From a virus, in IMG/VR virus record IMGVR_UViG_3300044492_000108, positions 1-27,963 of that record: 27,963 nt of DNA; one strand, given 5' to 3'. A model generated the notes under the pieces. That model worked only from the letters and a program-made list of their open reading frames with translations, made no database searches and was not told the DNA's origin. Of the stretch, positions 4,220-7,181 are shown in pieces. Within the stretch, counting starts at the first letter, position 1. Every line of letters starts with the position of its first letter. Position numbers and translations under genes: made by a program.

Positions 4220-4488
4220 AGCTGCAGAACCATCCCACCGCCCGTATTGCCGAGGTGATCGCGGCCGTCGCTGCCGGCGAGACGCGTCCGGCCGTTGCTG
4301 CGCGGTACGGCATGTCGGTGAGTGCCGTCGAGCAGGCGGTGAATCGCTGGCACGGCTGGAAGCCGCCCGTGGCGGCGCCGTTCTCGGTGCAGCACCGCTG
4401 CCTGCAGTGCCGTGAGGTGTTCGCGGCCGAGGCCCGTGGCAACTGGATTTGCGCCACCTGCAAGTCAGCCGAGAGGTGGCGCGCATGA
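4216..4488 (+). CDS. HTH plus zinc-ribbon small regulator
   Basis: 90 aa, ATG overlapping the upstream stop (ATGA). Residues ~8-45 look like a homeodomain-type HTH (ARIAEVIAAVAAGETRPAVA, ARYGMSVSAVEQAVNRW). Residues ~60-85 hold a zinc knuckle pair, CLQC...CATC. This architecture suggests a DNA-binding protein. Operon position beside the GcrA homologue suggests a regulatory role, but no specific family is recognised. Confidence 0.65.
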   Translation: MKLQNHPTARIAEVIAAVAAGETRPAVAARYGMSVSAVEQAVNRWHGWKPPVAAPFSVQHRCLQCREVFAAEARGNWICATCKSAERWRA

Positions 4489-4925
4489 GCGCCGATCTGC
4501 CATTCGGCATGCCGAGTCGCGTACCAGGGAGCGCGTGGGTGCGTCAGGTGCCGGGGCCGGCGCCACGGCAGTATCCCGAGATGGAACTGCAGTACGCCGT
4601 GATGCTGTACCTCGCCGCTGCGCTGCCACACGACGCCATCGCGCATCACTCACCCGGTGAGGGCAAACGCACCAAGTCCGCGCAGGCGACACTGTCGCGC
4701 TCAGGCTACTGCAAGGGCTGGCCGGACATCGAGATCGTCTGGCGGGGGCGGGTTTTCTTCATCGAGCTGAAGGCGGCGCGCGGCGTGCTCAGTAAGGCGC
4801 AGCGGGAGACGCATCGGCGGCTGGTCTACAGCGGCGCCTATGTCGTGATCTGTCGCACCGTCGATGATGTGGAGCGGGCACTGCGCGTTGCGGGCGTGCC
4901 GCTGCGGGCGACGGTGATGGCGTAA
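4485..4925 (+). CDS. VRR-NUC domain nuclease
   Basis: 146 aa from an ATG that overlaps the upstream stop. The VRR-NUC (PD-(D/E)XK superfamily) signature is complete: a helix with PEMELQ, then GYCKGWPDIEIVWRGR, FFIELKAARGVLSKAQRETH and a final strand AYVVICRTVDDVERAL. The G-W-P-D...E-L-K residues are the metal-binding catalytic set. Stand-alone VRR-NUC proteins are common in phage replication modules and act as structure-specific nucleases, for example on Holliday junctions or flaps. The length is typical for the stand-alone form. Confidence 0.88.
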   Translation: MSADLPFGMPSRVPGSAWVRQVPGPAPRQYPEMELQYAVMLYLAAALPHDAIAHHSPGEGKRTKSAQATLSRSGYCKGWPDIEIVWRGRVFFIELKAARGVLSKAQRETHRRLVYSGAYVVICRTVDDVERALRVAGVPLRATVMA

Positions 4926-4953
4926 GAGCATTGATCTATGGGGAGGAAACATA

Positions 4954-5754
4954 ATGCCGTCGCGCATTCGGCAAGGCCAGAGCATCGCAACCGTGGACAA
5001 GGAGCGGCGAATCGCTGCCGCCATGTCGGTGAGCATGCGCATTGCCAACAATGTATTCGGCGGCAAGGGTTTTCGCTATTGGCACTTCGACGCCAACGCC
5101 GGCAATGGATGGAACCACGAGGTCGGTGTGCCAGGCAGCCCTGTTGTGTTCTGGCATGTTGCGGAAACCTGCCTGCGTCGCATGGAGCCGGCGCCATTCT
5201 TTTGTGACCGGGACGCAATGGCGATCGAACAGCTTCGCGCTCGCCTCGGTCATCTACCGGCAGCAGCAGGCTCGATCCTGCTGCCGGGCGACAATGAGGA
5301 TGGGCTGGGCGTGTTCGCTGACAGCATCAGGATCAGCGAGAAGCCGCATTATGCTGTCGGCTCGCTCATCATCGATCCCAACGGCTACTACTACCGCAGC
5401 GCCAAGGGCATTGGTGCGCCTGTCGCTGGGTTGCAATGGTTCGTGCGGGAGTTCCCGCGTATCGACATCATCCTCAACCTGAACATGCGTACGTTCCATC
5501 TGCAGCGCGGCGCGGGTCACGCTGTAGCGACGCCAGCCAGTGTGCTCGCATCGCTGAACAGGAAGCACTGGCTTGTATCGCAGGCCGGGGGACAGTCGCG
5601 GCATCTGCTGGCGGTCGGCCGGAACATGGCGACCGGCGACCACAAGGCACTCGGCCTCTACGACATAGACAGCGATGCCGGCCGCAAAATCCTGAACGTC
5701 GATGCGGACTCTGCTGACGCCGGGACGGATCTGTTCGGGGAGACGGTATCGTGA
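4954..5754 (+). CDS. TcmP-like Rossmann-fold protein, partner of the three-Cys-motif protein
   Basis: 266 aa with a good GGAGGAAACATA-ATG start. The motif order looks like a methyltransferase-type Rossmann fold: FRYWHFDANAGNGWN (about 40-54), FFCDRD (82-87), ILLPGDNEDG (108-117), and SLIIDPNGYY (137-146) at the position of motif IV. Then comes DIILNLNMRTF, like the ILLNFP strand of TcmP proteins. TcmP (three-Cys-motif partner protein) proteins are known to be encoded beside Gp37/Gp68 (DUF5131) proteins. Exactly that arrangement is seen here, with a GTGA overlap to the next gene. The name is therefore based on motifs plus context. No substrate is known; a DNA- or nucleotide-directed reaction is only inferred. 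Confidence 0.62.
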   Translation: MPSRIRQGQSIATVDKERRIAAAMSVSMRIANNVFGGKGFRYWHFDANAGNGWNHEVGVPGSPVVFWHVAETCLRRMEPAPFFCDRDAMAIEQLRARLGHLPAAAGSILLPGDNEDGLGVFADSIRISEKPHYAVGSLIIDPNGYYYRSAKGIGAPVAGLQWFVREFPRIDIILNLNMRTFHLQRGAGHAVATPASVLASLNRKHWLVSQAGGQSRHLLAVGRNMATGDHKALGLYDIDSDAGRKILNVDADSADAGTDLFGETVS

Positions 5755-7181
5755 GCGAGTATCAGCAGCATCCGCTCTCGGCGGCGTTTCCGAAGATGTC
5801 TGACGCAGCGTTCGCCGAACTGCGCGCTGACATTGCGGCGAACGGTCTGCTGGCGCCGATCACGCTGTACGAGGACAAGGTGCTCGATGGATGGCACCGG
5901 TTTTGCGCGTGCGATGCCACCGGCACCGAGCCACGGTTCCGCACGTTCGAGGGCGACGAGAGCGCGGCGCGTCAGTTCGTCGTGTCGGCCAATCTCATGC
6001 GGCGACATCTCGATACAGGCGAGCGTGCCATGGTGGCGGCGAGGTTTGCCACGCTGCCGACGAACCGTCCGGATAAGGGCGCAAAATTGCGTTCTTCTAT
6101 GTCGGTCGATGAAGCGGCAGAGTTGTTCAATGTCAGCGCTCGCACGGTGAATAATGCCCATGCGGTGCTGGCCAGTGGCGATGACGCGATGATTGCCGAT
6201 GTGCAGAGCGGTAAGGTATCCGTCTCTGGCGCTGCGAAGCAGCTGAAGGCATCAACACCGAAGCCTGCACCGAAGCCGAAGCAGCTACCGGCCAACGTCA
6301 CGGCGCTACCGATCAACACCGGCTCCGTCACACTCGAACAGTGGGCCGCACTGGCGCCTGACATGCGGACGGCACTGCTGCGTCGGCGCAACAGCCGCGC
6401 CACGCTGAACCGGCAGAACGAACGCGAGGACGGCAACGCCATCGACTGGGCGCGGTTCACCTGGAACCCGATCACCGGATGCCTGCACGACTGCCCGTAC
6501 TGCTACGCCCGCGACATAGCCGAGCGGTTCCACTCGGAGGGTAGTCCCGCGTTCCCGGATGGCTTCGCGCCTGCGCTGCGTGCCGATCGTCTGTCGGCGC
6601 CGATCAACCAATTGCCGCCACAGAGCGACGATCCGCGCGACGCCCGCATATTCACCGGCTCCATGGCGGATATGTTCGGCCGCTGGGTGCCGGCCGAGTG
6701 GATCAATGCGGTGCTCGGCATCGCGCGCGAGGCGCGGCAGTGGGAATTTCTGATGCTGACGAAGTTCCCCAAGCGGATGTCGGAGTTCGAGATACCGAAC
6801 AACGTGTGGATGGGCACGACGGTTGACTGCCAGGCGCGCGTTGCTGCTGCCGAGGCTGGGTTCGAGCGGGTGCAGGCGCGGGTCAAGTGGCTGTCGGTCG
6901 AGCCGATGCTGGAGCCGATCCGGTTCAGCCGGCTGGACCGATTCAACCTGCTGGTGATCGGCGGGGCGTCAGTGTCGAAGAATACGCCGCGCTGGATACC
7001 GCCGTTCGAGTGGGTCGCTGACCTGATGCGACAGGCTGACGACGCGGGCTGTGCCGTGTTCCTCAAGTCCAACCTGTACCGGAAGGAGTTCCCTGGCGGG
7101 CCGCGCTACCGGTTCACCGATGAGCTGCCGCGCTCGCTCGATTACCTGGGCCGCACCAGGGTGGCGGACGGTGCAGCATGA
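5751..7181 (+). CDS. ParB-N domain fused to Gp37/Gp68 (DUF5131) three-Cys domain
   Basis: 476 aa from a GTG at 5751. Residues 1-110 are a ParB/Srx-type N domain (LSAAFPKMSDAAFAELRADI, ITLYEDKVLDGWHR, VVSANLMRRHLDTGERAM). Residues ~115-165 hold a HTH (VDEAAELFNVSARTVNNAHA). Residues 231-470 form a complete Gp37/Gp68 domain: IDWARFTWNPITGC with Cys 244, 248 and 251 spaced CX3CX2C like a radical SAM cluster site, then FTGSMADMFGRWVP, EFLMLTKFPKRM, NVWMGTTVDCQAR, WLSVEPMLEPIRF, LLVIGGAS and AVFLKSNL. ParB-N domains in phage proteins bind or hydrolyse nucleotides or guide DNA binding. The fusion and its coupled TcmP-like partner suggest an iron-sulfur enzyme acting on DNA or nucleotides. The activity itself is inferred. 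Confidence 0.85.
   Translation: MSEYQQHPLSAAFPKMSDAAFAELRADIAANGLLAPITLYEDKVLDGWHRFCACDATGTEPRFRTFEGDESAARQFVVSANLMRRHLDTGERAMVAARFATLPTNRPDKGAKLRSSMSVDEAAELFNVSARTVNNAHAVLASGDDAMIADVQSGKVSVSGAAKQLKASTPKPAPKPKQLPANVTALPINTGSVTLEQWAALAPDMRTALLRRRNSRATLNRQNEREDGNAIDWARFTWNPITGCLHDCPYCYARDIAERFHSEGSPAFPDGFAPALRADRLSAPINQLPPQSDDPRDARIFTGSMADMFGRWVPAEWINAVLGIAREARQWEFLMLTKFPKRMSEFEIPNNVWMGTTVDCQARVAAAEAGFERVQARVKWLSVEPMLEPIRFSRLDRFNLLVIGGASVSKNTPRWIPPFEWVADLMRQADDAGCAVFLKSNLYRKEFPGGPRYRFTDELPRSLDYLGRTRVADGAA

What the first reader, a model, noticed from the sequence alone, without database searches (positions are those of the whole stretch)
4954..7181. Coupled TcmP-like protein and ParB-N/Gp37-Gp68 fusion with a radical-SAM-like CX3CX2C motif
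The ParB-N, HTH and Gp37/Gp68 domains are joined in one protein; Cys 244/248/251 have radical SAM cluster spacing. A Rossmann-fold partner with DPNG at the motif IV position is translated just before it (GTGA overlap). Three-Cys-motif/TcmP pairs are known by context but, to my knowledge, have no proven reaction. A DNA-targeted ParB fusion points to DNA modification or nucleotide chemistry, perhaps against host restriction.
Basis: partly seen in the sequence, partly recalled or inferred. Interest (0 to 1): 0.68.

Follow-up and report, generated by a model that had tools for sequence, protein, structure and literature searches.

The report
Phage radical-SAM and methyltransferase-like enzyme pair
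This virus carries two coupled genes that look like a two-enzyme kit for chemically modifying DNA, one half built like a methyl-adding enzyme and the other a radical-chemistry enzyme fused to a DNA-binding module; the same kind of pair recurs across many phages and bacterial phyla, and I found no paper that says what it makes.

Summary
Observation confirmed. ORF 4954-5754 (266 aa) and ORF 5751-7181 (476 aa) overlap by GTGA. The second is a ParB-N/HTH module fused to a DUF5131 (PF07505) domain. Cys244/248/251 form CX3CX2C and are invariant in 67 aligned sequences. The predicted structure is a ParB domain plus a radical-SAM barrel, nearest to spore photoproduct lyase. The first gene belongs to a TcmP-like branch. 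Its fold and sequence profile match the m6A methyltransferase RlmJ, including RlmJ's essential Lys-Asp pair (here K16, D141), but motif IV is DPN instead of DPPY. Pairing is strong: 64 of 67 distinct viral loci with upstream sequence have the partner. Of 80 bacterial DUF5131 loci, 61 have TcmP in the fetched DNA, nearly always adjacent, and one genome carries both as a single protein. A tree splits DUF5131 into CX6CX2C (mostly bacterial) and CX3CX2C (mostly mobile-element) branches; ParB fusions form one clade (support 0.999). Best reading: a DNA-targeted two-enzyme base-modification pair, probably protecting phage DNA. Fold, catalytic residues and pairing are supported by computation; substrate, product and purpose are inferred. 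New variant of a known but functionally uncharacterised pair.

The parts
4940..4949 (+). Shine-Dalgarno-like GGGGAGGAAA upstream of the first gene
   Evidence: sequence read directly
4954..5754 (+). TcmP-like / RlmJ-like class I methyltransferase-fold protein, 266 aa
   Evidence: TIGR04474 E=3.7e-5, below cut-off; AF2 pLDDT 90.7; best fold RlmJ Z 15.7, rmsd 3.2 over 200 residues; hhalign of the phage partner family to an RlmJ profile E=4e-11 and to cellular TcmP E=1e-17
4999..5001 (+). Lys16, near-invariant; aligns with catalytic Lys18 of RlmJ (motif X)
   Evidence: conservation 0.99; alignment with RlmJ; K18A inactive in RlmJ (PMC3814359)
5089..5109 (+). SAM motif I, DANAGNG (residues 46-52)
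   Evidence: conserved D46, A49, G50, G52
5374..5385 (+). Motif IV, DPNG (residues 141-144); Asp invariant, aligns with RlmJ Asp164
   Evidence: D 67/67 in the partner set, D 50/50 in cellular TcmP; alignments
5751..7181 (+). ParB-N / HTH / DUF5131 (radical SAM) fusion, 476 aa
   Evidence: PF07505 1.8e-40; AF2 pLDDT 90.7, pTM 0.63
5754..6002 (+). ParB-N (ParB/Srx) domain, residues 2-84; GERR glutamate replaced (Trp48)
   Evidence: fold Z 12.2 to M. xanthus ParB; column counts; PDB profile hits
6093..6260 (+). HTH DNA-binding segment, residues 115-170
   Evidence: weak HTH hits; helices in the model; KorB and Noc matches extending to residue 172-173
6438..7085 (+). Radical SAM barrel (DUF5131), residues 230-445
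   Evidence: PF07505; best fold spore photoproduct lyase Z 13.1, rmsd 3.6 over 215 residues
6480..6503 (+). CX3CX2C cluster motif (Cys244, Cys248, Cys251)
   Evidence: 67/67 invariant; codons checked

Best explanation
The two genes encode a phage DNA-base-modification pair. The first protein is an RlmJ-like, SAM-dependent enzyme with a Lys-Asp catalytic pair suited to an exocyclic base amine. The second is a radical-SAM enzyme (one [4Fe-4S] cluster on Cys244/248/251, 5'-deoxyadenosyl radical) brought to DNA by its N-terminal ParB/HTH module. Together they would install a base modification in two steps, amine alkylation and radical chemistry at a carbon, most likely on the phage's own DNA during replication and probably as protection against host nucleases. 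Supported by computation: folds, catalytic residues, conserved pairing. Inferred: DNA as substrate, order of steps, product, protective role.
For: ParB fold plus radical-SAM barrel nearest to spore photoproduct lyase, a DNA-thymine enzyme (Z 13.1). Three Cys invariant in 67/67. Partner nearest to RlmJ, a base N6-methyltransferase (Z 15.7), with RlmJ's essential K18/D164 aligned to K16/D141. Partner found at 64 of 67 distinct viral loci with upstream sequence, 63 of them within 300 nt. TcmP in 61 of 80 bacterial loci. Natural DUF5131-TcmP fusion of 534 aa in Caldilineales, TIGR04474 E=1.3e-43. The same ParB/HTH module is fused to MT-A70 methyltransferases in Bradyrhizobium phage ppBeUSDA76-1 and Agrobacterium phage Rivra. 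In the window the pair lies between a VRR-NUC-like nuclease and an AAA_25 helicase/primase-like gene. The full-length fusion also occurs on a Streptomyces plasmid behind a TcmP-like gene.
Against: No direct evidence of any modified base. Motif IV is DPN, not DPPY, so amine methylation may not be the reaction. RlmJ acts on RNA and was inactive on single-stranded DNA (PMC3814359). DUF5131 also occurs without TcmP. ParB/HTH could serve regulation rather than targeting. The glutamate needed for CTP hydrolysis in ParB is not kept.
Confidence: 0.5

Rival explanations
1. The pair modifies RNA (tRNA or rRNA) rather than DNA, as RlmJ and RlmN do; the ParB module regulates or localises it.
For: RlmJ is the best fold of the partner and RlmN is among the best folds of the barrel.
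Against: The ParB/HTH module is shared with MT-A70 methyltransferases in phages. DUF5131 is patchy in bacteria (42 of 200 genomes of one family) and some bacterial loci neighbour HsdM-type or N6/N4 DNA methylases, unlike housekeeping rRNA enzymes.
Confidence: 0.18
2. The pair is an anti-phage defence or superinfection-exclusion module carried by phages and plasmids, acting on invader nucleic acid or nucleotides.
For: PADLOC lists DUF5131-type models as phage-defence candidates PDC-M30B and PDC-M41B, which match P0002 at 1.9e-38 and 1.6e-40. A related cellular-type pair lies beside the immunity repressor in Gordonia phage Angelique. A tcmP gene lies, by locus tag, close to the hna defence gene in S. 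meliloti (PMC12445080).
Against: In the window the pair lies beside replication-type genes, not beside a repressor. Candidate status in PADLOC rests on context as far as I know, and I found no paper with an experimental test.
Confidence: 0.17
3. Nucleotide-pool chemistry: the ParB-like domain binds an NTP and the radical-SAM barrel acts on it, as viperins do on CTP.
For: ParB-type domains bind CTP; viperin-like enzymes are among the barrel's fold matches (Z 10.3).
Against: Viperin ranks clearly below spore photoproduct lyase (Z 13.1). The HTH segment points to DNA. The hydrolytic Glu of ParB is absent.
Confidence: 0.1
4. DNA repair by direct reversal, like spore photoproduct lyase.
For: Best fold of the barrel is SPL.
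Against: No fourth Cys is invariant in the family; the window has Gly at the most Cys-rich candidate column (303), and SPL needs its fourth Cys (PMC3742179). It also leaves the methyltransferase-like partner unexplained.
Confidence: 0.05

Closest known systems
Three-Cys-motif / TcmP pair (PF07505 DUF5131 with TIGR04474 TcmP)
   Same: Same two protein families, adjacent genes, shared catalytic residues
   Different: Bacterial members mostly have CX6CX2C and DP[FY]G motif IV, with a wHTH tail seen in the one TcmP checked; this one has CX3CX2C, a DPN motif IV, no wHTH match and an N-terminal ParB/HTH module
Spore photoproduct lyase (radical SAM)
   Same: Barrel fold, CX3CX2C; SPL acts on a DNA base
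   Different: No invariant fourth Cys; ParB module added; partnered with a methyltransferase-like protein
RlmJ, 23S rRNA m6A2030 methyltransferase
   Same: Rossmann fold, GSP motif, catalytic Lys and Asp positions
   Different: DPN in place of DPPY; the helical insertion is absent; partnered with a radical-SAM enzyme
Phage ParB-MT-A70 fusion proteins (Bradyrhizobium phage ppBeUSDA76-1, Agrobacterium phage Rivra)
   Same: Homologous ParB N-terminal module joined to a base-modifying domain
   Different: The catalytic domain there is an MT-A70 methyltransferase, here a radical-SAM barrel
ParB / Noc / KorB
   Same: ParB-N domain and HTH order
   Different: Hydrolytic Glu lost; C-terminal part replaced by the radical-SAM barrel

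Membership tests
DUF5131 (PF07505) | score above the curated cut-off | tested here: met
   139 bits against 28.9
Radical SAM superfamily | CX3CX2C in the loop after the first strand of a TIM-type barrel | tested here: met
   invariant Cys244/248/251; model topology and SPL, RlmN, PFL-AE fold matches
Radical SAM superfamily | PF04055 above cut-off | tested here: not met
   15.6 bits against 29.5; 29 of 67 family members match at E<=0.01
Radical SAM superfamily | [4Fe-4S] cluster and SAM cleavage | not testable with these tools
   needs anaerobic biochemistry
TcmP (TIGR04474) | score above the curated cut-off | tested here: not met
   23.8 bits against 53
TcmP (TIGR04474) | homology to TcmP and adjacency to a three-Cys-motif protein | tested here: met
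   phage-partner profile without known TcmP finds 51 of 64 cellular TcmP and no other ORF; hhalign E=1e-17; pairing
RlmJ | catalytic Lys18 and Asp164 | tested here: met
   aligned to K16 and D141
RlmJ | DPPY motif IV | tested here: not met
   DPNG; DPN in most relatives
RlmJ | inserted helical subdomain between motif I and GSP | tested here: not met
   gap in the alignment
Spore photoproduct lyase | essential fourth Cys | tested here: not met
   no fourth invariant Cys in 67 sequences; Gly at column 303 in the window. Structural equivalence of that column with SPL C141 was not tested
RlmN/Cfr methylsynthases | two additional catalytic Cys | tested here: not met
   only three invariant Cys
ParB CTPase | ParB-N fold | tested here: met
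   Z 12.2, rmsd 1.7 over 82 residues
ParB CTPase | GERR glutamate (E93 in M. xanthus) | tested here: not met
   Trp48 at that column

The most novel reading that the evidence does not exclude
The pair writes an undescribed hypermodified DNA base in two steps: an RlmJ-like enzyme acts on an exocyclic amine and a ParB-targeted radical-SAM enzyme then works on a carbon of the same base; the more widespread bacterial TcmP/DUF5131 pairs would do a related reaction.
Probability: 0.3. Interest if true: 0.85.

Novelty: new variant of a known kind. Interest (0 to 1): 0.6.

Why it matters
DUF5131 and TcmP are widespread across bacterial phyla and phages, and the papers reachable here assign them no reaction. 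The RlmJ Lys-Asp pair, the canonical CX3CX2C in the phage branch and the ParB targeting module turn 'unknown pair' into a testable claim: a coupled methyltransferase-like and radical-SAM system acting on nucleic-acid bases. If a new DNA base were found, it would add a class of phage DNA modification and explain a common mobile gene pair.

Tried and rejected
Single-sequence searches of solved structures found nothing usable. Single-sequence viral scans found no relative for the fusion and one for the partner. No phage or plasmid record matched the partner by tblastn. Literature searches for DUF5131, Gp37/Gp68, COG4422, TcmP, 'GMT' wHTH and PDC-M30/M41 found no study of function. Considered and rejected: a plain partition ParB (C-terminal part replaced, hydrolytic Glu lost); an SPL or RlmN/Cfr orthologue (extra Cys not conserved); a chance CX3CX2C (67/67 invariance and the fold). 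The RlmJ match was first seen weakly (E=0.25; probability 65% with one RlmJ sequence, not reaching Lys18), so I repeated it with seven RlmJ sequences. A genome search with a locus as centre failed and was repeated with a handle.

Full report
WHAT IS THERE. The window is a 27,963-base virus record of GC 0.64 with terminase, portal and major-head genes. Two ORFs lie at 4954-5754 (P0001, 266 aa) and 5751-7181 (P0002, 476 aa) with a GTGA overlap. A Shine-Dalgarno-like stretch precedes the first, and both have coding-like codon-position GC.

P0002 carries DUF5131/PF07505 (E=1.8e-40) and PHROG ParB-like matches in its N-terminal part. Cys244, Cys248 and Cys251 are encoded at 6480, 6492 and 6501. P0001 matches TIGR04474 (TcmP) at E=3.7e-5, below that model's cut-off.

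RELATIVES. A profile scan of viral contigs found 406 relatives of P0002, of which the best 80 were kept. After removing eight exact duplicates, one locus without a called ORF and four loci whose upstream DNA is cut off, 64 of 67 distinct loci have a P0001-type partner. Sixty-three of the 64 lie within 300 nt of the fusion gene, and 17 overlap it by 4 nt or 1 nt. The sample is biased towards close relatives, since it is the top 80 by score.

The partner family keeps Lys16 (0.99), Asp46, Ala49, Gly50, Pro63, an acidic residue at 85, Leu94 and Asp141 (1.0), with DPN as the usual motif IV. An iterated profile joined all 65 usable N-terminal regions of the fusion proteins into one ParB-like family, though at a liberal threshold in a small set. 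Pfam sees ParB_N in 25 of 67.

A scan of bacterial genomes returned 80 DUF5131 loci, again the best-scoring and not a random sample. TcmP was found within the fetched DNA in 61 of them, nearly always next to the gene. In a Caldilineales genome both are one 534-aa protein: TIGR04474 covers residues 264-516 at E=1.3e-43, behind a three-Cys domain. A partner profile built only from the phage and plasmid set, with known TcmP removed, recovered 51 of 64 cellular TcmP ORFs and no other ORF.

TWO BRANCHES. Spacing of the Cys motif splits cleanly: 70 of 80 bacterial loci are CX6CX2C, nine are CX3CX2C and one is CX12CX2C; 87 of 88 mobile-element sequences in which the motif could be read are CX3CX2C (this set includes duplicates). 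None of the nine bacterial CX3CX2C loci has TcmP in the fetched DNA. A FastTree of 160 DUF5131 domains separates CX3 from all others exactly (support 0.994). A clade of 74 tips (support 0.999) holds all 69 sequences called as CX3 fusions, plus five sequences that are short upstream, of which three (L043, L057, L091) are cut at a contig end. Some phages carry the cellular type, so the split is of lineages, not strictly of hosts.

STRUCTURE. AlphaFold2 on the family alignments gave mean pLDDT 90.7 for both proteins. For P0002 the pTM is 0.63, so the relative placement of its domains is uncertain. Residues 1-83 match ParB (Z 12.2, rmsd 1.7 over 82 residues; M. xanthus ParB). Residues 186-439 match spore photoproduct lyase (Z 13.1, rmsd 3.6 over 215 residues), above RlmN (Z 10.6) and viperin (Z 10.3). 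P0001 matches RlmJ best (Z 15.7, rmsd 3.2 over 200 residues), with other class I methyltransferases at Z 13-14. A shared fold does not prove a shared reaction.

ACTIVE SITES. With seven RlmJ sequences as a profile, hhalign aligns RlmJ with cellular TcmP (E=1.8e-12, probability 97.7%) and with the phage partners (E=4e-11, probability 97.2%). These are single-comparison E-values. Lys18, the GSP motif, the motif II acid and Asp164 of RlmJ fall on the conserved Lys16, GSP, Asp85 and Asp141. In RlmJ, K18A and D164A abolish activity (PMC3814359). The DPPY motif is not kept, and the RlmJ helical insertion is missing. In P0002 only three Cys are invariant. The essential fourth Cys of spore photoproduct lyase (PMC3742179) and the two extra Cys of RlmN/Cfr (family knowledge) have no invariant counterpart. 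The ParB hydrolytic glutamate is Trp48 here.

WHY DNA. The same ParB/HTH module is fused to MT-A70 methyltransferases in Bradyrhizobium phage ppBeUSDA76-1 (E=3e-13) and Agrobacterium phage Rivra (E=1.1e-15). The pair lies in the window between a VRR-NUC-like gene and an AAA_25 helicase/primase-like gene. Both catalytic domains have nucleic-acid-base enzymes as nearest folds. In bacteria DUF5131 is patchy (42 of 200 genomes of one family), and some loci neighbour HsdM-type or N6/N4 DNA methylases (a cluster spanning six loci, of which one member was checked by Pfam). None of this shows the substrate.

INTERPRETATION. I favour a two-enzyme DNA-base modification pair, one half working on a base amine and the other by radical chemistry, targeted by the ParB module and probably protective. 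I give it 0.5. RNA modification, a defence role, nucleotide chemistry and repair are rivals, listed with their tests. PADLOC files DUF5131-type models as defence candidates, and no paper found here tests this.

NOVELTY. The DUF5131/TcmP pair is catalogued by Pfam and NCBIfam without a function. What is new here, to my knowledge, is the ParB-fused CX3CX2C clade with its DPN-type partner, the RlmJ-like Lys-Asp pair in TcmP, and the fold link of DUF5131 to spore photoproduct lyase. The Pfam Radical_SAM and NCBIfam rSAM models already gave weaker hints of the radical-SAM assignment.

Noticed in passing
window 4449-4925 (+): VRR-NUC-like nuclease just upstream of the pair (Pfam 1.1e-4, just under the cut-off; PHROG endonuclease families). 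L002 has a similar-looking ORF at 4435-4899.
   Followed up: partly
L094, L095, L099: Clostridial CX3CX2C DUF5131 proteins without TcmP carry a Cys-rich C-terminal extension.
   Followed up: no
L186 3395-5838; L188 4013-5652: Gordonia phage Angelique and Synechococcus phage Ssp-JY39 carry a CX6CX2C DUF5131 with a convergent TcmP; in Gordonia it lies beside the immunity repressor.
   Followed up: partly
L185 3995-4927: Mycobacterium phage Squirty has a CX6CX2C DUF5131 with no TcmP found in the 8.8 kb fetched.
   Followed up: partly
L189 4031-4693: ANMV-1 archaeal virus DUF5131 has a shifted Cys arrangement (GLCPEACEYCY).
   Followed up: no
L173 2228-5288: Agrobacterium phage Rivra: ParB-MT-A70 fusion followed by a PAPS-reductase-like gene and a DNA methyltransferase.
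   Followed up: partly
L006 3958-7122: On a Pseudomonas aeruginosa conjugative plasmid, DUF5131 and TcmP lie directly behind a site-specific integrase.
   Followed up: no
L117 5787-7583: HsdM-type DNA methylase next to a bacterial DUF5131/TcmP locus; its blastp cluster spans six of the 80 loci.
   Followed up: partly
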